A stretch of DNA of 38,618 nucleotides from Ectocarpus siliculosus (Eukaryota > Sar > Phaeophyceae > Ectocarpales > Ectocarpaceae), in NCBI GenBank assembly GCA_000310025.1, contig FN649726.1, positions 3,048,967 through 3,087,584 on the forward strand, in the 5' to 3' direction. The notes beneath the pieces are model-generated. The model worked only from the letters and a program-made list of their open reading frames with translations, did no database searches and was not told where the DNA came from. The position numbers and the translations under genes are program-made. Below, one piece after another: positions 15,601 to 33,680 of this stretch (position 1 is the first letter of the stretch; every line of letters begins with the position of its first letter).

Positions 15601-17835
15601 CGACCGCGCTGACTGATAGATTACGTTCCGTCTTGTAAAAAGCGGGAGCAAAAAACGCCTTCTGGCCCACGGGCTCCCTTGAAAGGGGGCCTCGGGGAGG
15701 AGATTCGGACGACGGGGTCGTCTCTGTACCGAGGGTGCTTGAATTGAGGAGAAGGCGCGGCGACACCGCGAACTGCAGCACCCCGCTTGCGGTATCTATC
15801 TACTTCTCCCGCATTAGCATCCTCACCGTGCAGTCGATTAAGACCGAGCTCTATTCTCTCCGCTGGGCTCGGCACTAGCTTGAGCGTAGTCCCGGCTGCG
15901 GTAATTTCTGGACCTCTATTCGCTACCCTGCTTTGAAAGTCTATTCCTCGCGCGTCTTACGCCGTCGTTGCGTGATGACGGTTTTACATTGTGTGTGTGT
16001 CGCTCACTTCTATTCCATATAGACCGCGCGCGCGACCCGGCCGACCGATGAACGCACGACCTCGGCGAGAAGAATATTCGAAGATCGCTGATAAACCGGT
16101 AGGGTACGTGGCACATGACGTCCCCTTACGGACGGGGGCCCTGAGAGTAGCGTGGACAGATACTCGCGCGTGTGTAGCGAGGAGGAGGAGGAGGAGGAGG
16201 AGGAGGCCGCTGGCGAAGTTTTGTCGTCGGGGTTCGCTCCTGAGGCCCCCTCACAAGCGGACTGGCTCTTTGGTGGTCATGGAGGAAAAAGCGTGTTCGC
16301 ACGTTTCTGTTTTTATTTTGTTCGCTCGTTGCACTCCACTCTTCCCCCGAGCATCAGGTCGCGCCGTTTCGTTCGGCTCCGCGCTCTTGTTGCGGGTGCT
16401 GTGTTTTAGTGGCACGGCAGCCAGTTTAATTCATACACAACTATCGTGGCGTGTCCTCGTGCTTGGTTCGCAGGCACGGCAAGAAGGGGATGCTGCTCCG
16501 GCTAGTAGCGGCGGGGGCGGCGGCGGCGGTGGCGGGAGCGGGAACGGTAGCGGGTTCCCCTTGCGGCGAAGAGGGACCACACCGACAGGTGGCGGGCCGG
16601 GCGGTGGCGGCGGCGGCGGCGGCGGCGGCATGTATTCACCCTCGCGGCTCCAAGGGTCCGCGCCGGTTAGCAGCGGCAGTGGTGACGGTCACGGCGTCGG
16701 TAGTGTGCACATGCCCTCGCAGCAAGGCGAGACGACACCGACGAGAGACGGCGGCGGTGGCGGCAGCAGCGGGATGTACTTTCAAGGGGGGGCTGCACCG
16801 GCTAGCGGGGTTTGCGGCGGTGACAGCGATGATCTGTACTTACCCTTCCAGCTAGGAAGGATCACACCGCCTAACTCCGGTAGCGGTCGCGGCGGCAACG
16901 TGTACTCACACTCGCGGTTACCAGGGGCCTCGCCGGTTAGCGATGGTAGAAGTGCGCACTTCATGCACCAAGGGAGCACACCACCTGGCGGCGGCGGCCG
17001 CGGCGGCGGTGGGTACTCACCCTCGCAGCAAGGAGCGACCACACGGACTAGCGGCGGCAACAGTGGTCCCGGCGGCGTGCACTTGCCCTCGCGGATTCCT
17101 GGGGCAGCACCGACTAGCAGCGGTAGCGGTGAAGCGAGCGGTGTCGATGTTTCGCACTTACCCTTGCAGCAAGTAAGGATCACATCGCCGCGCGCCAGCA
17201 ACAGCGGTGGCAGCGACATGCACTTACCCTCGCCGTTACAAGGAGCGCCGGCTAGCGCCGGTAGCGGTGACGCGAGTGGCGTCGATGGTCTGTACTCAAC
17301 ACCGCGGCATGACGTGGCGGCACTGGGTAGAAGCCCGGGCGGCGTTGTTGGTTTACATGCCTATACTCAGCAAGCACCCATGACAGGCAGCGGTGTTGGT
17401 TTCCCCGGGCAGCAATGGGGAGCCCCGCCAGCAAGACGTGGCGGCCACGACGGCTTTTATATGCTACCCCAGCAGCCAGGGGCAGCGCCGGAGGGGACCC
17501 ATCGCATCGGTGGCGAAAAGTTGTACGTGCGCCCCCGGCAGCACGGGGCCACGCGGGAGGGGGTCCACGGTGGCGTGTCTATATCCCGCCAGCCGCAAGG
17601 AGTCGCGCCTGAGGGGGTCCGTGGCGTTGGCAGCAGGGCCAGGGGCGTGTGTATTAGCCCGGAGCGAGAAGGTCGGGCCTCGCCGGTCGGGAGGCGGGGC
17701 GATGGCCACCGCGGCAGCGACGGCGGCGTTGCCGGTGCCGGTGTTGGCCGGGTCAGGGACGACTACGTGATGGTGTCGCCGGATCGCCCGCCCCCGGTTC
17801 CTCAGCCTCATTACGGTCCATACAGCAGCCGATGA
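6634..17835 (+). CDS. EF-hand-like / SH2 / TPR-repeat protein with Gly-Tyr-rich tail (989 aa)
   Basis: Thirteen exons: 6634-6735, 7323-7525, 8707-8860, 9631-9867, 10380-10439, 10833-10913, 11471-11658, 12426-12525, 13801-13902, 14139-14264, 14928-15067, 15422-15536, 16474-17835. Phases agree throughout. An in-frame TAG lies just before the ATG. Residues 7-100 resemble the EF-hand-like module preceding SH2 in Cbl (FWDLMQ...WDTF; ALFLTRFGPMRSCL). The SH2 domain is about 114-213: WFHGKLSRDEA opens it and GVFLFRYSD holds the phosphotyrosine-binding arginine, R148. Residues 238-530 are amphipathic helical exons of TPR type (e.g. HQLLAEYFLSRGSPGRGLDHF; GISYFRCQDYGPAGVRFEKVL). Residues 537-989 are a Gly/Ser/Pro-rich tail with a recurring Y..P..QG unit. 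This suggests a phosphotyrosine-reading adaptor; no catalytic domain is seen. The gap at 11869-12152 lies in the intron between exons 7 and 8. Phase needs no exon there, but one cannot be excluded. Exon 8's acceptor has a weak pyrimidine tract. Confidence 0.82.
8249..8268. repeat. Poly-C run in SH2-gene intron
   Basis: A C homopolymer of about 17 bases lies in intron 2 of the SH2 gene. Similar C or G runs occur at about 4-18, 11048-11060, 12200-12220, 14388-14402 and 36430-36447. They are typical of this genome and are likely places for sequencing length errors. Confidence 0.8.
11869..12152. other. Assembly gap (284 N)
   Basis: Run of N bases inside the intron between exons 7 and 8 of the SH2/TPR gene. 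Its true length is unknown. Confidence 1.
12618..12764. repeat. Intronic hairpin with a second diverged copy of one arm
   Basis: CTCCGATATACGAGGGT (12618-12634) pairs with its near reverse complement ending at 12670 (CGACCCTCTTATATCGGAG), with one mismatch in the paired core and a loop of about 17 bases. The right arm plus its C-run is repeated directly about 88 bp downstream (12739-12764, TCGACCCTCTCATACCGGAG). The structure begins 93 bp after the donor of exon 8 of the SH2 gene. Confidence 0.7.
16178..16207. repeat. (GAG)n trinucleotide microsatellite in intron
   Basis: About nine tandem GAG triplets lie in the last intron of the SH2/TPR gene. An open frame crosses it (from 15991 into the final exon), but the acceptor CAG at 16471-16473 and phase show that this stretch is intronic. 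Confidence 0.75.
16500..17660 (+). repeat. Degenerate coding repeat, about 20-residue Y/P/QG/Gly unit
   Basis: The last exon of the SH2 gene encodes many diverged copies of a unit of the form (Y/H)-x-P-(S/x)-x-x-QG-x-x-P followed by a Gly/Ser linker. Examples are MYSPSRLQGSAP, DLYLPFQLGRITP, NVYSHSRLPGASP, GYSPSQQGATT, FYMLPQQPGAAP and LYVRPRQHGAT. About twelve tyrosines occur in the tail, most at the same place in a unit. The underlying DNA has long GGC/GGT runs around 16505-16630. Confidence 0.75.
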
Positions 17836-19906
17836 CAGGGCACTCGAGAGTAGGTGTCAAAGACGACGAGATATTCCGGCGGAGAGGGTGGGGTGGCATA
17901 GGGGCTTGTTTCGGTAGAGGTCTTGTTCTTATTTTTTTTAGCTCTCATGGAGAGTGCGCGCGCGTGGTGGGTGGGTTGTACTCTCTAACGCTTTCAAGTG
18001 ACGGGGGACGCGAGCAGTCGGAAGGGCGCTGGGGAGGCGGCGTACGCTTGAAATCCCTGCGCGAAAACAGAGGGGCAGTGGTTCGGTCGCCGTACTACGA
18101 ACACCGACTGCTGCACGGATTCTGTCGAGGAGGCGGTTTACATGATATTCTGACTACTTCCAAGGTATATATATTTTTTTGTGAGCGTCGTCCAGGTCTT
18201 TTTGTGTAATTTTGGGCGCCCTTATCGGCGGCGTTCTCTGAAGTTTTGTTTTCGCCAGGCGTCCGTGTGCTAATAATACATTATACATGAATCGTTGTTT
18301 TTCTCGGCGATAAGCTTGGTTGCCTGTAATTGTTGTAGAATTTTCCGGCGCATTGGTGGTAAGTTGGAACGCGCCTGCCGGCGATTCCCCCCGATAATTT
18401 ATACGTGTACGACGTTTGTTTTCGTGTGGGATTTTCGTTTTCGTTTTTTTATTTTTCGTGTTTTGTACAAGATCCCGGTTTTATAGACTTACTCGCAGCA
18501 ACAAGGTTTGTTTGTAGATCACAAGGTTGGCCTGATAATTGCCGTCGATCTAAGGCCCCATAAGTAGTGCGGGGCGACCTCCGCTTGTTGTGCGCCGCCT
18601 TTTTGGATTTTGTACTTGCCCTGCAAGCATCCATGTACTGCTGTGGTAGGTGGTTGTTTCGCGGCTAACCGTGCATCTTGGTGTGCTTGCCGCCCGTTTT
18701 ATTGAGGTAATCAGCTACGTGCACAGCGACGGGAAGAGGAAGACCAGGCGATCATTCTGTGAGGTCAATACGATGATGATAAATTTTTAGTATGAGAGAG
18801 GGGTTCGTTGCTCTACACCCGTAGCCCGTAGAGTCGTCTGCGTTCAGGACCTAACACCCACCTACACCATAGGTTGTTTTTGTGGTGCATCTTGCATTCA
18901 TTTGCCGTCGCCCAGGAAAGAAATCGATAAAGAGAGAGAGACGAAATGATGCTGCTGCACACTTACTTGCTGTTTGCGGCCCCCTTTTGTGGGGGCCGAA
19001 CGGCCGAACTCACAAGATACCAATTTCACGCGGAGATGGTGGTCTAGTATGAGGCGGTCAGCACGCGCGGGTTCGCGTGGCTTGCTGTCGTAGTGCCTGC
19101 TTACCTACCACATAATTCTTCATCAGTCGTTCGTGCGGTCCTTCGCCGATCGGGTTCAAGGGCCGCCGAAATGAGCCGAGCTCACGTGTGTGTATGTGCC
19201 GAGAAGAGACGGTGAAGAGGTTCCATTTCACAACGGATTGCCAAGTGATGTGCGGGAAAGCCAATGAGTAGAATCCGAAGCCCTCGCGTGTATTAGCTGC
19301 TCGGGCGTCTCGACATGCGTGTATCAACCAATCATTGTTCATTCACATCAACCCGTTTGGTGTGGGGAACATTCCGCCACCGTCCCGCGGCTTTTGGGAA
19401 AGGATCTCTTATAGCCATAACTCTTCTTCCAGGCCACACCGTCCGCAGCATGTGCAGGTACAGCCAAGATGATATGTACCCACAACTTGTTGCAGGATGA
19501 TTGTGGTTTGACACAACGGACGCTGCTGCTACATACACCGGCAACCGGACCAATTCGTTTGAAGGCAGAACTCTGCCTTTTTATCGTTTTCCCTCCAAGC
19601 CTCTGTCACAATGGGCGCTTCGTGAAACCGTTGTCGCCTTGCAGCGCGATGAAGGGGTTAATCGTCCAAACCTCTAGCCCATTCGGAAGTGGGCGTGGGC
19701 GTCGATGGCGGGAGAGTGCAGGAGTGGTAGGCGGCTGGTAGCACAGCAGTCAACAGTCACACGTCTTTTTCGAGAGTTGTAGGGGCTCCGGCGAAACGTA
19801 AACACGTACAGCAGTAGGCACCAGACCAGCGGATCCGGGCTGTGGGTTCCCCCGCAAAAGTTCACATGATGCCACACCATACGACGGACGCCGTGCGCTT
19901 TCCGCG
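17836..19906. other. Intergenic region, no gene recognised
   Basis: This 2.07-kb stretch holds the 3' UTR of the SH2 gene and presumably the promoter of the proteasome-like gene. Short open frames on both strands show no family resemblance. A perfect 7- to 8-bp hairpin, GGCCCCC..GGGGGCC, occurs at 18978-18997; no role is assigned. Confidence 0.6.
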
Positions 19907-22900
19907 ATGAGGTTTACGTTCGGCGTGCTGCTGCTGATTTCTCCAGGGGCCCTACGCGTTAGATCGGTGGCACATGTGTGAGTAATTTTTTCAAATTTCG
20001 ATTCGCTGGTGTCTCCTGTCTACTGATGACACACTACAATACAGCGCCGTAACATATCAGAATACCATACACCGTGGACCAATTCCAAAGCTCGATTACT
20101 CCACGACGAAGAGGATGCATACACCGAAGGATGCGTTTCCGGAAAGCACTCGACGGGACGGTTCCAACGCCGCCATTCTCGTCACCGCCACTTTTTTGAC
20201 TTCATAAAGCGATCAAGCTTGAAAATCGATCCAGGGGGCATGGTATCCTAAGCGACCAACGGCACAAACTCTCAACAGTTTAGTTTGTATGCATACATTG
20301 TTGTTGTTGTTGTCTTCACATTAAAAACCATTCCGGTCTCCGCTCAGTACCTTCTAATGTCCGTACTGGTCCAACTGACGCAATAATAGTACACGTACAT
20401 ATCAAGCATGTTGCATGCAAAACTGCTGGTCTCTCTCGATGACCCTCCCACCCGGCTGGCGAGGAGATCCGGAATCGCTCGCGACGCAGACCTCTCCCAA
20501 AAGTTCGAAAGAGACAAAAAAACTAGGCTCTCGGAGAGGAAGGTCTATTGCGGCAGCCTGGAACTGTTTTGGCCGGCTGCCATTGCCCGAACTGATGAGG
20601 TCCCAGTAACCTTGGCAGGGTTCCGCTATTAATTGTGCATTTTGGATAAAGCATGCAATCGGGGAAGTTCAGTTGGGTGAGGGCTAGGGATGGGGTCTGC
20701 GTGACAACCCCCTCCCTGTTCTCTGTCCTCAATGCACTTGTTCATATTTTCTCGCGAAGGCGGTCCCGGCATGAGGCAGCATGGCGCATCATCCCACAGG
20801 CCTCGATATAAGGCTCGGCGATCAATCACCTCCATCGTTACTTACACATGGACTTACCTGGTGCTGGAGATGGACCACTGAACAACGATGTCTGTGTCTC
20901 CTCTCTCTTGCGCGCTTTATGCAGGCGCCGAAAAGCTCCGGTTCGGGAAAAGAAGGCGTACGACACAAGCGTGAGAGCTTTCTCCCCGGACGGTTCCATC
21001 TATCAGGTACGTCAACGTTGGAAGAGCTGTGTTGATGCTCATGTATGGTAAACGCGGTGGCTGTTTTCAACCATAGAGCGATCTGATGCCAGAGCTTCCA
21101 GCACCGCAAGAAACATGCCACTATGGCACCCACGTCGACGCAGAGATGGAAACAAGGCAAGCAAAAGTTGATCAACGTAGAAGTACGGATAGACGGATAG
21201 ACAGGCACGCAGTCGGGCAGAGACAAGAGGCAACGAACTAGGTGAATAGAACTGCTGTAGCTGTAAACGGTTCCATATCAGCACATATGCACATGTTTTT
21301 GATGTATTTCTTTCCAGCTCGCTGCCGGCGCCAACGTAACCGACGGACACCAGAACCTCTTCCTGCGAAACTCGAAAGACATGTGAAGACGCCCAGACCC
21401 ACAAGACAATCACGCCCGCCCACCCCCCAGGTGGAGTACGCCGTCGAAGCCGCGGACAAGGGGGGCCTGACGATCGGCGTGCAGACGGACAAGGGCTTGG
21501 TGCTCGCGGCGCACGGGCGGCGGCGCTCGCCGCTCCTCAAGGCTTCCTCGGTGTCCAAGATTGCCGACGTGGACGACGGGCGCATGTGCTGCGCCATGTC
21601 CGGGCTGCTCCCGGACGGCCGCTTGCTGCTCGACTACGCGCGGTGAGATAGTTAGGCCTCGCAGCGACCCCTCGCACGCACAGCAGTATGTTTGAGGCCG
21701 CCGTGCCTTCTAACGGAGGCTACCGTGCCCACCCACGGTAGTATTGAGTATGTCTGGGGACTAGGTTAACCCAGGGCCGATGCAGATGATATACAGTAGA
21801 ACCTTGATTATCACACACCCCGGGCTCCTCCCAGCACAGTTCACAGTATTATATAGTGAACATAAACTGAACAAATGCGTGGCTCTCTCTCGCGAGGGGC
21901 CCCGCACTTGGACACCCAATAGCATACCCCCCTACACACGTACTCCCCAGATCGGATCTTGTATCCAAGTGCCCCAAACACCGTATACACAAACCTGTTC
22001 GGTTTGCTCATGTTTGAACCTGTTTCTTTCGACGTGCCCGGTATGTCTGTCGGCAGCCTCTCTCCGATGCCAACGTTTTTGCGAAACCAGGTCTTGACTG
22101 GAAGTGCGCCGACTGAGCGTGAAGATATGGAACGTATTTTTGCGCCTGTCACTCCCCCCCCCCCTCAGAAAGTGCTCCCCGTGTGAAGCTTTGTGGCACG
22201 ACCGTAAAAACAAACGTCCCACCCGCACTATCTATCCAACCGTCCGTCCTCCCGTCGGCCGGTCGTTTGCTTGTGTCTTGTCTGTCGGCGGAACAAACGC
22301 GCACACGGCATCACGAACCACAACCACACATGTATTCATAGCACGTGGGTCCAAGAGCACCGGTTCGAGTTTGACGAGGCTCCTAGCGTGGAGGCGGTGG
22401 CGTCCCAGCTCAGCCGCCTGGCGCTCAAGTTCAACGGCTACGACAAGGACGGGAAGGCCGGTAACGGCGGGCGGGAGGAAGAGGACGGCGGCGGCCCGGC
22501 CATGTCTCGGCCGGTGAGAGCTATGTAGCGAAGAACGGCCCGGCTGTTGTAGAAGCTCGAAGAACGTTGTACAGGGGGTTGGTATCGAATGCCCCCCTGT
22601 TGTAGCTTGGCGATGCCGTACACTTTTTTTTTACGCGATGAATGCATGCACGGGGTGTATGTAGCGCGGTGGTCTTTCTGACTTGCTGCTGGTACATTCA
22701 CTTGCTTATAGCCCGCTTGTGCACCACCGATCAAATCGCTGCTTGGTTATTTTTTCCTCGCCAGCATGAAACGATGGAAACTAAGGCAGAAAACCCGTTG
22801 TTGTGTGCGAACGCTTCTTCCCTTCTCGTTTGTTGTATTCTGGTGTCAGGTGGGCGTGGCCCTCCTCATGGCGGGAGTAGATCGCGGGGATCGGCCGGTG

Positions 22901-24110
22901 CTGTACCACTTGGATCCTTCCGGTGAGCAGCGGAGGAAATTTTTGCAGGGCAGGCTCACTTGTTGCATGCTTCGACGTCAGCGGATGTCTTTGAAGGGAG
23001 TGCCGCGAAGTGATGGCACACCGGGCAGCACCCGACGCCTTGAAGTACCGGGGTTGTACAGCAGGATGACTTCGTTGAGTTTTTTTTTGGGGGGGAAGGG
23101 AAATTGGAGGGGGCAGGAGTCGTTCTTTGCCTGCTTGCCTGAATGATAAAACGCGTTTTTTGCTACACCGAGGACGTGGCACCGCTTATATTCTCCCCTC
23201 AGGCACTTCCTTTCCAACATATCGGCGCTCATTCCATCGTCATGCTTTTTTGCACCCCACCTTGAAATGCCCTTGTTTTACTCGTCGCAGACTCCTCCTC
23301 CTTTGCTCTTTTGCCGTTGTGCGCTGAAAAGGCGGTCGGTAGCCGCCTCAACTATCGTGGCATCCCCAGCCTTGCCGCTTGCCGACCTATGGGCTTTCGT
23401 TGTCCTGTTTCCTCACTATTGGTCCCACCTTTCGTGCGTCTCGCGTAGGAGCCTACGTGCAGTGGAGGGCGAGAGCCATCGGCGACAAGGGTGCCGCCGC
23501 GGAAGCAAAGCTGGAGGGGGTTGGCCCCTTCGAGGGCATGAGCGTGCGGCGCGCGATGGCCGCTGTGCTCGGGGTGCTCCGGGAGGTGCTGGGTGACGAC
23601 GAGTTTTCCACGGACCGGCTGGAAATGGTGTGCGTGGACATGATGGGCGGCGGGCGTGGCAGCGGGGACGGGGGAGGGGGAGAGAGGGGGGTATGTTCGC
23701 CAGGCGCGGAGCACGGCGCGACAAGCGCCAGCGATCACGATAACGTTGGTGGTGGTGGTGATGGTGCTATTTCTGGGCCTCCTTTCGCTGGCGAGGGGTC
23801 GTCGGTTAGTGCTGCACCGCCTTCGTTGTCGGGAGGGGGGGTTAACGACGGGAGCGCTAGCGGTGTTCGCAATTTTGTCGGTCGAGATAGCGGCAGTAGT
23901 GGTGGTGGCGGCGTGCTAGAGGGGGGTGTTGAGGTTGGGCGGGAGGATGGGTCGTCGGCAGCATCTGGCGTTGGTCGTTCCTCCGCCGCTGCTTCTTTTG
24001 TGCCGCGCTACGGTTATTTTAGACGAGTGCCCAAAAGCGAGATGGATGAGCTGCTTGCTGGAAGCACCAGAGGTGACGGCGAAGAGTCGCCAACAGCAGC
24101 GAATGGCTAG
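19907..24110 (+). CDS. Divergent 20S proteasome alpha-5-like subunit with signal-peptide exon (423 aa)
   Basis: Exons: 19907-19977, 20925-21006, 21431-21642, 22342-22513, 22850-22922, 23449-24110 (1272 nt, phases 2,0,2,0,1, all consistent). Conserved alpha-subunit blocks: AYDTSVRAFSPDGSIYQ/VEYAVEA (N-terminal alpha signature), GVQTDKGLVLAAHGRR, SKIADVDDGRMCCAMSGLLPDGRLL, then MSRP/VGVALLMAGVDRGDRPVLYHLDPSG and YVQWRARAIGDKG. The MSRP-GVALL and LDPSG spacing fits alpha-5 (PSMA5) best. Alpha subunits form the gating outer rings of the 20S core and are not catalytic. Oddities: exon 1 encodes a hydrophobic leader (MRFTFGVLLLISPGAL...) followed by a basic stretch (RRKAPVREKK); GRL in the signature is GSI; and about 117 Gly/Ser-rich residues (270-386) separate the last helix from a terminal FRRVPKSEMDELL that resembles the normal alpha-5 end. 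Usual length is about 240 aa. An alternative start at 20848 is open in frame but would ignore a very good acceptor at 20924. Confidence 0.8.
21792..21861 (+). mobile_element. Possible pogo-like transposon end in proteasome intron
   Basis: TA followed by CAGTAGAACCTTGATTATC resembles the terminal repeat common to pogo/Fot-type elements. Just inside it, GTTCAC..(11 nt)..GTGAAC (21839-21861) is a short palindrome. No matching inverted end was found in the rest of the intron (21643-22341), so this may be a decayed or solo end. The call rests on recalled consensus and is weak. Confidence 0.3.
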
Positions 24111-24933
24111 GAAATTTGTTTACATAGTTCGGAATGATGCGGAGGCGTCATTTGTGTTGTATGTAGCTGTTGGGTGTTGTTAAAAATAGTGACGTGGTGC
24201 GAAAGATGTACTATAGAAGCAAGCGTGTCTCGTAGTGGTTTCGCGTTGTTGATGTGGCGTGTCCCACCTGAACATTTCACATTTAACATCAATGCGCGTT
24301 GTGGCGCAGAAGCTTTCCGGCTCAAAGATCGCACCGTCATGGATTGCGCGAAGTCCATGCATGTTGCACCTGAGATGTTCTCCCACCGCCTGTGTAGGTC
24401 TGTTTCTTGTGTGAGTGCGTTGCACCCTCGACGAGCTCACTTACTCCTACTCTAGTCCCACCTTTTGCTGACAGAAAGTTTCTGCTGATATGTACGCGTA
24501 TGACGCTGCCACGGAAGCTACCGAACGTCGGATGTATTCCCACGCGGGCACTGATTGGCGTTCCGTGCAGTGAAACCTAACTATTTCTTCGTACGAATTA
24601 TTGGGTGTGTTGTTTCCGGAAGAGACGTCTACACCCTCTGCCCTCTCCTCTTATTTTTAATCTCGCTATCGTCTGGGACCCCCACACTGCTCCACTGAAC
24701 GTAACAGGTAAGTGCCTGCACGTGTCGTTACTGCTGCTGGTACTGCGTATCGAACTGCCACTTCAAATTAAAAAATCACTAAGGGGCTCCGTGAATGTAC
24801 GCGGGGGCGCCGTGCGGTACGCCACGCCGCAGAGCCTTCATCATATGCGCACGACGTGTACACCCATAAGCGACGAGCACACCCACCACTTTCTTTGAGG
24901 GCGCGTTGTGTGGGTGTGTCACCTGTCGGCGAC
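24111..24933. other. Intergenic region, no gene recognised
   Basis: These 823 bp separate the stop of the proteasome-like gene from the start of the lipase gene in the same direction. They hold a 3' UTR and presumably the lipase promoter. No clear coding segment or core promoter was seen. Confidence 0.55.
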
Positions 24934-27900
24934 ATGAAGGTCTCAACGCCACGGTTGGCGCTCAACCACCTTGCCCTCTCGTTGCTCCTATTCTTTTCTC
25001 CAGCCTCCGCCGATCCCGCACCCGTGACCGATCTTACAACAACAGTTGCTGCATCGTCCGCCGGCGACGGTGGACTGGGCTTGAGCTACGACGAGGGCCT
25101 CGCGAGCGTGATCGTCCGCTTGACGGAAGCCGCGTACTGCACACCGCAGCTCGCGTCGTGGAGCTGCAAGGCCTGCCAGCACTTCCCGGGCATGAGGAAC
25201 GTCACCGTAATCAACGGCGAAAAGCGCAACGTTCGGGGCTTTGTGGGAGTCGACATCGGGGACGCCGAACCATCAAACCGGTACACTTCAACTACGCGCG
25301 GACCCGGCCCTGACGATCGACGACACCTCCGTGCTGCAGAGGGCGACGACAGGGACGCGGGCGGGGCTGCACAGTCCGGTAAAGCGCGCATCGTGATTAC
25401 CTTTTCGGGGACGGACCCGAGCAGCGTCAAGGTATGTTCGTTGGAGTGCAACATTCATATTGTGCACTACTCCGCTGCGCTGCTGGTTGGTGCCTTGGGG
25501 ATGATGAATCAGTTCCTGAGCGCGGGTGCTGCTCCAACCACCCACTCCAATGGAGGCGGGTTGAAGACCTCAAATCAGCAGTGTACAAGAGGATGAAGTT
25601 TTAGGACACCATCTCGTAGCAACTGCTTATTTAGTTCCACACACATGAGACATGAGACCGAAATGTAAGCAATTTTTCGAAACAAACGCGGCGAGAATTC
25701 TTTGGGGTGGCCAAAAAGAGGCAAGAAAAGGAAGGTTGTTGCAGCCGCCGGACCTCCCGTGAGCAGAGAGGCTTGTGGACGAGTAACACAACAATCTCTC
25801 GCGGTCCCTGTCCCCTGTCCTGTGTAGTTCCAGCAGTCTTAGTTGGCCCCAACCGACCGGCAGCAGCAGGTGGCAGCACAAACGATTGCATTACTGCAAC
25901 ACTCGCTGCTTTGTCACAAAGGGACCAGAGAAAAACGCCCAACCGGCGCGTGACGACCATTGCAGTAGTACGCCTACCGTAGACTCCTCCTTCGTGTCAC
26001 CTGACCACGTGCTGTCGTCCACCTACATCTGCGTTAATGTTGCTGTTGGTAACCTATCAACACTGTCTTTTACGCGTTAAGTCTACTCTTAAACCTACCG
26101 ACACTGTATACTGCTGGGTTTTTTTCGCGACGCAGAACTGGATCGACGACCTGGAAGCTACTACCGTCCCCAACACGTACGGGGGGTTGTGCGAGCAGTG
26201 CCAAGTCCACCGAGGCTTTCTAGCGGCATATGATCTGGTGAAAGACCAGGTATGTATAGTAGTGTACTGCTGTATATGCATGCAGACCCAGTGTCATAGT
26301 CGTCAAGTCCCTAAAGCCTACATACAATTTAGGTCAGCTCTGAAGGTCGTAGTGCGATGCGAAGCGGTACGGTATGCAAAGGTGATGCGGTGTATGAGTT
26401 GTCGGTAATGGGGGTCGCTGTCTGTGCGGAGAGGATCACAACACGCCTCTTTGAGTTTCCCGCGTTCCCCCTCCCTCTCCGTGCACGTTGTCGACTGCAT
26501 CGACCAAAGGTCCGCTACGCGATTGGGCAGCACATGCAATACAACCCGCACGTCCAGATCCTCATCACGGGCCACTCCTTAGGGGCGGCGCTGGCCGTGC
26601 TCTGCTTCTTGGACCTCCGGGTGAACAGGGGTCTCGGGCAGGGACCCAATTCGTCGGTCTCCTTCGCACCTATCTACCTCTTCGGCTCCCCGCGGGTACG
26701 TGGGTGTGGGGTGTTGGCAACCAAGCCAGGTCGTTGGTTTTATGTGTCATGCGCGAACAGCGCACGGCCGTCCACGCCCCGGTGCGAAAGAAACAATCGA
26801 CGCGTCGCTCGTGACCTAGTAGCTACGGGTTGCGTGGTGATTAGTTCGTTTCAGTCTTTTTGTCTGAAGCATGTGGTCGAGGGGAGATTTTGAGCCAAGC
26901 CTTTGGGAACGACCCGCTTGCTGGACGGCGCTACGCCGCTACTTCATCGATTGCACACACAGGTAAAACACAGCCGGGAGGCGCCCATTTTCTGTAGTCT
27001 TGTTCGATGACGTGGCTGACATCTGGTACTCTCCTACTACTGCGATTTGTCTGGCTGCTTTGTGTCTGTCTCGCATTGTTCCGCTTGTTGTTTTCCCGAC
27101 TGATGGAACGGGTTGTTCCGCGTGAGCCAAGGTCGGGAACGAAGCGTTCGCGACCTTGACGACCCGCCCGGGCGTTTCGATCTTCCGGCTGGTGCACCAC
27201 CGTGACCCGGTGCCGCACCTGCCGCTGGAGGCCTGGGGGTACCACCACCCGCCCACGGAGGTGTTCTACACCGAGGACCAGTCGAGCTACCAGGTCTGCA
27301 ACAACAGCGGGGAGGACGACAAGTGCTCGAACCAATTCTGGGTGAGTTTTGTGGAGTACCTTTGCCTTTTGTTGGTGCTGTTGTGTTTCGGCGATCAATG
27401 CTCTCGCGTTCGTGTGTGACTTGGGATTGCGATGTTTGTGGTTTAACGTGTGGGCGTGTAACTTTGTTGGGGTAAGTAGTGTGATCTGGTGGCTATGTGC
27501 GGACGGCGCGTGGTTGATGGTGATTTTGCGGGTCTCCTGTGCATCTTGTATCCTGGACCCATCAGCAGCAGCAGCAACAACAACAGCCTCAGCAGCAAAC
27601 GAAATTCAGACTTGGGCATTCGTGATTGAACATGTGTGTGCGTTGACGTGTATCTCGTTGTCGGTCAAATCGGACCAAAACGATGACGCTCAATGAATCC
27701 CTCTCCCCGCCGCACTTTTCGACGGCTGTATCCTGAGAACATAAACGCGATGACACCCGGTGAAACCAACGCCCTATACGCCCTTGGCACGCCACGCCAC
27801 ACCACAGGCGATTTTCGGCAATATTGAGGACCACCTGTGGTACCTGGTGGTGAATTACAGCACGGCTTACATGCAGTGCCAGCTCGACGGAGAATCGCGA

Positions 27901-31997: not shown

Positions 31998-33002
31998 CTA
32001 TTTCTTCTTCCCGCTCGAAGCCGCCGCCGTGGCAGCGGTGGCCCTCTCCTCCATCTTGACCGAGATGATCGACTTGGCCGTCTCGTACGCGCCGAAGAAG
32101 ATGGCGCCGCCGAAGGCGATGGACGTCATCCTCGGCACCGACCCGGCGAACAGCGCCCCCGGCCCCTCCTCCTTCAGGATTGATCTCAAGCACCCGCCAA
32201 TGCCGGCGTACTGCCCGGGGCTCTGGGTCATGAGCCGCGTCTTGACGACGTCGAGCGGGGTCGTGAGCCCGGCGGCGATGCCCCCCGCGACCGACCCGCA
32301 CAGGGAGCCCTGCCAGGGCGCCAGCTTCTCCCCCTTGACCTTGGTCCACTCGCTCTTGAACCACTCGTAGAGGGGGAACTCGATGATGTCGAAGGGAAGG
32401 TCGCGCAGGGCCAGCGCGCCCCAGCCCCGGTAGAGGCCCCTGGGCCCCTGCGACTTCATGACGCTGGCGAGGGCGGCTCTCCCGGAGGCGTCCACGCCCG
32501 CCTGCACCCGCTGCTTGATGACCTCGAAGGGCACTCGGACGACGCTCTGGGCGAGGTCCGCGCCGGCCGCCGCCCCGGCGTGCGCGACGGAGGCGTAGTC
32601 TTCCGGCAGCTTCTCCGTGAGCACGCGCTTGAGGGAGTCGTAGGCGCCGAAGAACACGGCGGCACAGGGAGCGCTGGCGGCGATGGCGGGAGCGACGCCG
32701 TTGAAGAGCCCGCGGAACGTGTTCATGGAGAGCTTGGCCCCCGCGGTCGCCTGCAGGCGCGTCTTGACCGTGTCCAGAGGGTACAGGACAAGGTCCACGG
32801 TGGTCCCCGCCACGGCTCCGGAGAGGAGGCCGGTCACGAAGCTATCCTTCGTGCTCAGCTCCGGCAGCGCCTTGCTCTCTACTGCCGCTTTGCTCTTCTT
32901 GCCCTTCCCCGCCGGCAACTTGACAGTCCCCGCCTTCTGCGCGGCGTTGCTGGTCGGCAGCGCAAGGAGCACCATCGCGACGCATCCTGCCAGGACCCTC
33001 AT
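31998..33002 (-). CDS. SLC25-family carrier, S-adenosylmethionine carrier-like, with N-terminal leader (334 aa)
   Basis: A single uninterrupted exon encodes three tandem carrier repeats, each with the signature PX(D/E)XX(K/R): PLDTVK (75-80), PFEVIK (158-163) and PLDVVK (249-254), followed by the usual TRLQ, QRVQ and TRLM. RVPFEVIKQRVQ, the LYRGWGALALRDLPFDIIEFPLYE stretch, and GLFAGSVPRM-type endings (LFAGSVPRMTSIAFGGAIFFGAYE) fit the SAM-carrier subfamily (SLC25A26 / plant SAMC), which exchanges SAM for S-adenosylhomocysteine across an organelle membrane. Unlike typical mitochondrial members, it begins with a hydrophobic leader MRVLAGCVAMVLLALPTSNA and then a Lys-rich stretch (23-45). That suggests routing through the ER, possibly to plastid membranes. 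It has no introns, unlike its neighbours. The C-terminus is Ala/Ser/Lys-rich. SAM-carrier assignment is by recalled motif; a different SLC25 substrate is possible. Confidence 0.87.
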   Translation of the reverse strand: MRVLAGCVAMVLLALPTSNAAQKAGTVKLPAGKGKKSKAAVESKALPELSTKDSFVTGLLSGAVAGTTVDLVLYPLDTVKTRLQATAGAKLSMNTFRGLFNGVAPAIAASAPCAAVFFGAYDSLKRVLTEKLPEDYASVAHAGAAAGADLAQSVVRVPFEVIKQRVQAGVDASGRAALASVMKSQGPRGLYRGWGALALRDLPFDIIEFPLYEWFKSEWTKVKGEKLAPWQGSLCGSVAGGIAAGLTTPLDVVKTRLMTQSPGQYAGIGGCLRSILKEEGPGALFAGSVPRMTSIAFGGAIFFGAYETAKSIISVKMEERATAATAAASSGKKK

Positions 33003-33680
33003 CTGGCGTGCAGCTCAAGCTACAGTGGCAGCGACAAGCAGCGCCCTTTCTCTCTTCTCTGTCGGCCTTGTGCTGCTAACCCGTCCCTGGCTGCCTGGTT
33101 CATGTGTATGTGAGGACAGCAGAGGAGGCTCGACGGACCGGAGTACAAGGGGTGACCGCATTACTGCAGTCCAGTGAAACACGGAGCCCCAGACCGAGGA
33201 GAGAGGACGGACCACACCCGAGGACCCCGGTTTACCAATTGTTCTTTGAATTTCAATTTTTTCAGACTATTTTGTTGATTGATGTGAAGGACGCACATAT
33301 CTGGTCTGCCTGTGCGACAAGGAGTGGCGTGGGACACGGAAGGGAGTTACGGCACAACGGAGTCGCCGCGCTCTTGCTCTGAGGGAGGCATCCAGCCACG
33401 ACCAAGGGAACGCATCCAGGTACTCCGAGGTGGGGTGAAGGTTTTGAGTACTGCTGCATGCAGCTGCCTCTGCGAAAAGGCTCGGCTGGACGGATCCTTG
33501 GAGTACGTTTTACTTCGTGACCCCATTCGCAAACATTGCTCGCCTCTCATTTGCCGCGCTTTCTCTCTCTCGTGCCGTTCCATGCGTGACTCTGCCTCCC
33601 GGCAGGCAAGATAAGTGCCCACCCTGATCCAGCACAACCAGCCGCCGCCGTCGCGAGGGGCAGCACGACAACGAGAAGAT
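33003..33680. promoter_or_regulatory. Shared divergent intergenic region between carrier and PH-like gene
   Basis: These 678 bp lie between two outward-facing start codons and should contain both promoters. No TATA box or other element was identified with confidence. The role is inferred from orientation. Confidence 0.35.

What the first reader, a model, noticed from the sequence alone, without database searches (positions are those of the whole stretch)
19907..21006. Signal-peptide exon on a proteasome alpha subunit: possible periplastid proteasome
Exon 1 (ATG 19907, donor GTGAGT at 19978) leaves two bases that exactly complete the codon at the very good acceptor before RRKAPVREKKAYDTSV. The result is a hydrophobic leader plus a basic stretch ahead of the alpha signature. 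20S subunits normally have no leader. In algae with red-derived secondary plastids, a signal peptide followed by a basic transit-like region directs proteins to the plastid or periplastid compartment, where a ubiquitin/Cdc48 (SELMA) machinery operates. The core is also divergent, as expected of a compartment-specific paralogue rather than the cytosolic alpha-5. This could be part of a hidden symbiont proteasome.
Basis: partly seen in the sequence, partly recalled or inferred. Interest (0 to 1): 0.85.

Follow-up and report, generated by a model that had tools for sequence, protein, structure and literature searches.

The report
Second, secreted-type proteasome in an alga
This gene makes one part of a second protein-shredding machine whose parts mostly seem to carry an address tag for the secretory route, most likely for the leftover compartment around the alga's captured chloroplast; such a machine is already known from related algae.

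Summary
Alone it is only suggestive (11 of 200 shuffles score as well). The genome adds the weight: besides 13 ordinary 20S genes there is a divergent set of 13 (alpha-1' to -7', beta-1' to -6'), each falling in its own subunit class. All 7 second-set alphas have a signal-peptide-like leader candidate; 0 of 6 ordinary alphas do by the same procedure. Betas do not separate. beta-1', -2' and -5' keep the catalytic residues. Only six Rpt-type loci were found. Of two extra Cdc48 genes, one has a candidate leader and an HbYX tail; the other ends LFG.

This fits a cap-less periplastid 20S core, already described for plastid-bearing heterokonts (PMC5070193, PMC5756292). The compartment is inferred, not shown. 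New member of a known kind.

The parts
19907..19977 (+). exon 1 of alpha-5': signal-peptide-like leader MRFTFGVLLLISPGALRVRSVAHV
   Evidence: donor 6.7 bits; 11 of 200 shuffles as good
19978..20924 (+). intron 1 (GTGAGT...GCAG)
   Evidence: acceptor 8.7 bits; 57 of 10,700 AG sites reach 8.6
20925..21006 (+). exon 2: basic stretch RRKAPVREKK and alpha N-terminal signature AYDTSVRAFSPDGSIYQ
   Evidence: PF10584, E 2.4e-10 in the assembled protein
21431..21642 (+). exon 3: VEYAVEAADKGG...LLLDYAR; pocket lysine replaced by Gly (AAHGRRR)
22342..22513 (+). exon 4, with an acidic/Gly-rich insert before AMSRP
   Evidence: weakest acceptor of the gene, 1.9 bits
22850..22922 (+). exon 5: VGVALLMAGVDRGDRPVLYHLDPS
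23449..24110 (+). exon 6 to the stop codon; long Gly/Ser-rich insert, then YGYFRRVPKSEMDELL, which resembles the alpha-5 C-terminus by eye
   Evidence: the insert could hide an unrecognised intron
20848..20924 (+). rival in-frame start (MDLPGAGDG...) used only if intron 1 is not spliced
   Evidence: no signal-peptide character

Best explanation
The gene encodes alpha-5 of a second, complete or nearly complete 20S core proteasome, targeted by signal peptides into the secretory route and most likely on to the periplastid compartment (the former red-algal cytosol) of a secondary-plastid alga. Shown by sequence: a second set of 13 subunit genes including all seven alphas, signal-peptide-like leader candidates on all seven alphas, intact threonine active sites in beta-1', -2' and -5', and no second set of 19S ATPases detected. 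Inferred: the core works without a 19S cap and clears failed or spent proteins in that compartment, fed by the leader-bearing Cdc48 that still has the HbYX docking tail, while the Cdc48 that lost the tyrosine serves import. Also inferred: docking is restricted to part of the alpha ring, because the basic pocket residue is gone in alpha-2', -5' and -6'.
For: Second set: (57 PF00227 matches in 26 loci including the window: 25 20S genes and one HslV), plus the alpha-6' locus first seen. Class assignment: (trees), and 46, 66, 67 for three members against solved structures; 16 PF10584 matches, of which 13 are these alphas (6 ordinary, 7 second-set) and 3 are weak (E above 1). Leaders: one procedure for all 26 genes; best score 2.24-4.12 in 7 of 7 second-set alphas, at most 1.2 in 6 of 6 ordinary alphas. 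Catalytic positions T1, D17, R19, K33 and the S129, D166, S169 motif positions, with residue 45 as R/G/M in beta-1'/2'/5'. 19S base: 6 Rpt-type loci, 5 over the family's cut-off. Cdc48: 3 loci, 1 over the cut-off, all three confirmed by spliced alignment; the C11 gene's top leader candidate is MKNTVFAVVAAAAVDGASA and it ends DDLYG; C241 ends DLFG. Published: heterokont periplastid compartments hold only 20S subunits, host-encoded and carrying signal peptides, and usually two sCdc48, mostly one of them with HbYX (PMC5070193, section 16 read; PMC5756292, passages). The window gene's tree branch (1.12) lies in the second-set alpha range (0.86-2.02), not the ordinary one (0.27-0.51).
Against: No ordinary alpha-5 and no second beta-7 were found. 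For betas the leader test does not separate the sets: ordinary beta-2, -3 and -7 reach 2.75-3.18, beta-3' only 1.98, and beta-5' has no leader found. The same-exon test over all 26 genes is only borderline (8 of 13 against 3 of 13 at 1.5; Mann-Whitney p 0.09). Several leaders are short, without an obvious transit-peptide-like stretch (alpha-4', beta-1'), unlike the candidate leader of the C11 Cdc48. That Cdc48 leader is the best of 158 candidates, with a weak acceptor (3.0 bits) and no shuffle control. The second set is slightly closer to the host copy than to human in 10 of 12 classes. The signal-peptide score is home-made; no SignalP or ASAFind was available. ER-lumen residence is not excluded. 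No expression data.
Confidence: 0.84

Rival explanations
1. The second 20S set stays in the ER lumen or another part of the secretory pathway and is not passed on to the periplastid compartment.
For: Several leaders look like bare signal peptides followed at once by the mature domain (alpha-4' ...CMA-AVYDRA; beta-1' ...VDA-TTLVAA), whereas the candidate leader of the C11 Cdc48 has a long post-signal stretch. PPC and ER localisations have conflicted in some experiments (PMC12136025, passages).
Against: No ER-lumen proteasome is known (recalled). Heterokont 20S subunits with signal peptides are reported as periplastid. By eye, the residue after the likely cleavage site is mostly Ser, Arg or Gln and not Phe, which fits the published PPC rule. 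A lumenal core would lack the Cdc48 partner (inference).
Confidence: 0.08
2. The window gene is the only alpha-5 of the cell and is cytosolic, translated from 20848 without the leader; the leader exon is a chance match.
For: No other alpha-5 was found; an in-frame ATG at 20848 exists; 11 of 200 shuffles give an equally good leader.
Against: 44% identity to human against 54-63% for the six ordinary alphas; loss of the pocket lysine that is Lys or Arg in all six ordinary alphas; low-complexity inserts as in other second-set members such as alpha-3', alpha-6' and beta-5'; an acceptor in the top 0.5% of AG sites; leader candidates on all six other second-set alphas. Without this gene the second alpha ring would lack a subunit.
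Confidence: 0.05
3. The second set consists of paralogues of the host genes with a specialised role in the cytosol, and the leaders are over-read 5' regions.
For: Open frames upstream of ordinary genes occur here too (for example alpha-2 and beta-7), the beta leaders are not separable from the ordinary ones, the second set is slightly closer to the host copy than to human in 10 of 12 classes, and beta-6' groups with the host copy at 97/91.
Against: The difference is small (mean identity 0.42 to the host copy, 0.40 to human, while host-human is 0.58). In six classes the tree places the second-set row outside the host-human pair with support of at least 87/83 (long branches may contribute). The alpha leaders separate completely.
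Confidence: 0.03

Closest known systems
Periplastid (PPC) 20S proteasome of plastid-bearing heterokonts such as diatoms (Moog 2011, Stork 2012, Lau 2016; first two not held, third not looked up; all cited through PMC5070193, see also PMC5756292)
   Same: Host-encoded 20S subunits with signal peptides, no 19S set, two extra Cdc48 of which one keeps HbYX
   Different: Here all seven alphas and six betas are found with intact active sites, whereas a passage of PMC5756292 calls the heterokont version degenerate. beta-1' appears to have no propeptide. Whether these details differ from diatoms could not be compared.
Nucleomorph-encoded proteasome of cryptophytes (PMC5070193, section 16)
   Same: A proteasome in the former symbiont cytosol
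   Different: Encoded by the nucleomorph and including the regulatory part in G. theta; no signal peptide needed (inference)
Ordinary cytosolic alpha-5 (PSMA5, PUP2)
   Same: Domain, signature and class placement
   Different: Leader exon, 44% identity to human, lost pocket lysine, long inserts
SELMA import machinery (Cdc48-based)
   Same: Presumed same compartment and targeting route; candidate unfoldase partner
   Different: A translocation machine, not a protease

Membership tests
20S proteasome alpha-5 subunit | Pfam proteasome domain and alpha N-terminal signature | tested here: met
   PF00227 E 1.7e-31, PF10584 E 2.4e-10
20S proteasome alpha-5 subunit | Closer to alpha-5 than to other alphas | tested here: met
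   the best 11 solved-structure matches are named alpha type-5; clade 100/99
20S proteasome alpha-5 subunit | Basic residue in the activator-docking pocket (VEKR) | tested here: not met
   Gly at that column; I treat it as a mark of divergence, not as defining the class
Periplastid 20S proteasome of heterokonts | Host-encoded second set of 20S subunits | tested here: met
   13 second-set genes; a second beta-7 not found
Periplastid 20S proteasome of heterokonts | N-terminal signal peptides on the subunits | tested here: met
   candidates on 7 of 7 alphas; on 5 of 6 betas by inspection, but betas are not separable from ordinary ones by the uniform test
Periplastid 20S proteasome of heterokonts | Non-aromatic residue after the signal-peptide cleavage site | tested here: inconclusive
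   Read by eye with the -3,-1 rule from the peptides; for the window gene cleavage after PGA would leave Leu, after VRS Val
Periplastid 20S proteasome of heterokonts | No second 19S cap | tested here: met
   6 Rpt-type loci (5 over the cut-off); the search may miss weak matches, and the non-ATPase cap subunits were not searched
Periplastid 20S proteasome of heterokonts | Located in the periplastid compartment | not testable with these tools
   needs localisation
Periplastid 20S proteasome of heterokonts | Red-algal origin of the subunits | not testable with these tools
   no red-algal or nucleomorph sequences at hand; only argue against a recent host duplication
Catalytically competent 20S core | T1, D17, R19, K33, S129, D166, S169 in beta-1, -2, -5 | tested here: met
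   (alignment to recalled human sequences)

The most novel reading that the evidence does not exclude
The two proteasomes of this alga share two subunits. Twelve classes have a pair of genes, while alpha-5 (the window gene) and beta-7 were each found once, and each of these single genes offers two starts: one with a signal-peptide-like leader (exon 1 at 19907; MLAHLLSSAAFLLLSPL... ahead of beta-7) and one without (ATG 20848; MDGTRQ). Alternative starts would then supply one part to both the cytosolic and the periplastid particle, tying their stoichiometry together.
Probability: 0.05. Interest if true: 0.75.

Novelty: new member of a known kind. Interest (0 to 1): 0.42.

Why it matters
A 20S core with intact active sites but no 19S cap, in the remnant cytosol of a captured red alga, raises a testable question: how does a compartment that uses ubiquitin and Cdc48 for import avoid destroying what it imports, and what feeds the core? 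The census gives a near-complete parts list in one genome, a candidate unfoldase with its docking tail, and three alpha pockets that have lost their basic residue, so the docking model can be tested. It also suggests that beta-1' may have its catalytic threonine exposed by signal-peptide removal, because the leader ends directly at T1.

Tried and rejected
A start at 20848 without the leader: kept only as a rival. A second beta-7: two searches with the found beta-7 (20, 41), none. A relative in viral contigs: none (43). A leader for beta-5': none good with 4 kb more upstream DNA (49). A second UMP1 assembly factor: one gene only (33). Pfam scan of ten other window ORFs: a carrier and a lipase, nothing linked to proteasomes (70). 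Rfam on the window: 0 families at gathering score (71). Tandem repeats in 19000-24500: none (72). One search translated the wrong frame. My first exon 2 end was one base short and was corrected. In one search the frames of alpha-1' and beta-6' were set wrongly and the beta-4' acceptor fell under the cut-off; redone. Structure prediction was not run, because sequence homology settles the family. Papers sought but not held: Stork 2012 and Moog 2011, cited only through PMC5070193. Library searches: (one search listed 25 of 55 papers and one search listed 8 of 46); among the titles and abstracts listed I saw none describing this set in a brown alga, which does not show that none exists. From memory, not from a call: the rarity of leaders on 20S subunits, the absence of known ER-lumen proteasomes, beta-subunit specificities, and the organism as a probable brown alga.

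Full report
The window lies at C1:3048967-3087584 of a 189-Mb, 492-contig genome. It is probably a brown alga or near relative (inference from size, introns and the genes below; no name was available and none was tested). The gene in question is a proteasome alpha-5. Exons at 19907-19977, 20925-21006, 21431-21642, 22342-22513, 22850-22922 and 23449-24110 join to 423 aa. Pfam gives PF00227 at E 1.7e-31 and PF10584 at 2.4e-10. The best solved-structure matches are alpha type-5 chains, and the tree places it with human and Arabidopsis alpha-5 at 100/99.

The leader was tested alone. Splice matrices were made from 55 introns of ordinary 20S genes in the same genome, as placed by spliced alignment. 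The donor at 19978 scores 6.7 bits and the acceptor at 20925 scores 8.7; only 57 of 10,700 AG sites in the gene loci then held reach 8.6 (a few loci counted twice). Taken alone it is suggestive, not proof.

The genome supplies the rest. A Pfam proteasome search gave 57 exon matches in 26 loci, the window included: 25 20S genes and one HslV. One further gene (alpha-6') showed up. Spliced alignment, scores and trees sort the 26 20S genes into 13 ordinary ones (alpha-1, -2, -3, -4, -6, -7 and beta-1 to -7; 39-68% identical to human) and 13 divergent ones (alpha-1' to alpha-7', the window gene being alpha-5', and beta-1' to beta-6'; 29-57%). Every divergent gene falls in its own class; alpha-6' is the least sure, with support 82/87 and mixed structure matches, while alpha-7' is clear (where the class is called alpha type-3). 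A second probe, PF10584, gave 16 matches: 13 are exactly these alphas and 3 are weak.

Second-set members are almost equally far from the host's own copies and from human (mean identity 0.42 and 0.40 over 12 classes on shared columns; host-human 0.58), though slightly closer to the host copy in 10 of 12 classes. Of 12 classes, six place the second-set row outside the host-human pair with support of at least 87/83; beta-6' instead groups with the host copy (97/91), alpha-4' weakly with human (91/70), and four are unresolved. This argues against recent duplication in the host. Long branches may contribute, and red-algal origin itself could not be tested.

Leaders were searched in all 26 genes by one procedure with a home-made signal-peptide score. 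Alphas: the best score is 2.24-4.12 in 7 of 7 second-set genes and at most 1.2 in 6 of 6 ordinary ones. Five of the seven leaders (alpha-2', -3', -4', -6', -7') lie in the same exon as the conserved block and need no splice guess, for example MARRRKLPHAAIVSVLSAAACLLSAALGAQSADS-KYDSGTTMF. Alpha-1' and alpha-5' use a leader exon. Betas: beta-1', -2', -3', -4' and -6' have plausible leaders by inspection, beta-5' has none found, and the score does not separate betas: ordinary beta-2, -3 and -7 reach 2.75-3.18 while beta-3' reaches 1.98. A same-exon comparison over all 26 genes is borderline (8 of 13 against 3 of 13 at 1.5; Mann-Whitney p 0.09). The case therefore rests on the alphas. For beta-1' the leader ends directly at the catalytic threonine (...GLVDA-TTLVAARFDGG), so signal-peptide removal could expose it; this is inference.

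Is the second core active? beta-1', -2' and -5' keep T1, D17, R19, K33 and the S129, D166 and S169 motif positions, and residue 45 is R, G and M as in the caspase-, trypsin- and chymotrypsin-like subunits (the specificities are recalled knowledge). What feeds it? PF16450 finds six Rpt-type loci, five over the cut-off, so no second cap base was detected; other cap subunits were not searched. PF02359 finds three Cdc48 loci, one over the cut-off, and spliced alignment confirms all three. For the one on C11 the best of 158 leader candidates is MKNTVFAVVAAAAVDGASA followed by a long stretch (donor 8.8 bits, acceptor only 3.0, no shuffle control), and the protein ends DDVDDLYG, an HbYX tail. The one on C241 ends DEDLFG, the tyrosine lost; its N-terminus was not resolved. 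The basic residue of the activator pocket is lost in alpha-2' (Ser), alpha-5' (Gly) and alpha-6' (Asp), and is Lys or Arg in alpha-1', -3', -4' and -7' and in all six ordinary alphas. My reading: a cap-less core served by the HbYX-bearing Cdc48 at a subset of pockets. The parts are shown; the interaction is inferred.

Known background. PMC5070193 (section 16 and passages read) states that the periplastid compartment of plastid-bearing heterokonts holds only 20S core subunits, host-encoded and carried by a signal peptide, and that such algae usually have two sCdc48, mostly one with and one without HbYX. PMC5756292 (passages) says diatoms have periplastid 20S proteasomes without the 19S cap and elsewhere calls the heterokont one degenerate. 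PMC12136025 (passages) gives the rule that periplastid proteins lack the Phe-like residue after the cleavage site and warns that such classifications need caution. The finding is thus a new member of a known kind; what it adds is a near-complete parts list with intact active sites and the pocket pattern.

What does not fit. No ordinary alpha-5 was found by a Pfam family, two proteins, two patterns and the alpha signature, and no second beta-7. A cytosolic proteasome needs alpha-5 (recalled knowledge), so either it is missing from what could be searched (about 2.4% of the letters of L001-L031 are N) or the window gene serves both. The first is likelier: the window gene's identity (44%), branch length (1.12 against 0.27-0.51 for ordinary alphas and 0.86-2.02 for second-set alphas), inserts and lost pocket lysine place it in the second set. 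The single beta-7 could belong to either set: its 47% identity to human looks ordinary, but an in-frame signal-peptide-like stretch precedes its presumed start. That leaves open the bold reading given as the novel case.

Noticed in passing
32001-33014 (-): A mitochondrial-carrier protein (PF00153, E 1.9e-56) whose frame opens with a signal-peptide-like MRVLAGCVAMVLLALPTSNAAQKAG; such carriers usually have no leader (recalled), so it may sit in a plastid envelope membrane.
   Followed up: partly
24934-26890 (+): Downstream: a signal-peptide-like start MKVSTPRLALNHLALSLLLFFSPASA and, about 1.4 kb on, a Lipase_3 match in the frame 26333-26890 (E 3.8e-9); that they form one secreted lipase gene is inference.
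   Followed up: partly
15979-17835 (+): A 618-codon open frame rich in Gly and Ser with imperfect repeats; coding status unknown.
   Followed up: no
L025+L031 (beta-7 gene, C6:2618500-2624500, minus strand): In-frame MLAHLLSSAAFLLLSPLISSSML stretch ahead of the presumed beta-7 start MDGTRQ, possibly a second, targeted form.
   Followed up: partly
L017 (beta-1', C11:3662500-3669500, minus strand): Leader ends directly at the catalytic threonine with no propeptide (VDA-TTLVAA).
   Followed up: partly
L018 (C489:1460500-1466500, minus strand): An HslV-type protease subunit gene with introns (best reference match HslV).
   Followed up: no
L034+L040 and L035+L041+L042 (Cdc48 genes on C11 and C241): Two extra Cdc48: one with a candidate signal-peptide leader and LYG tail, one ending LFG.
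   Followed up: yes
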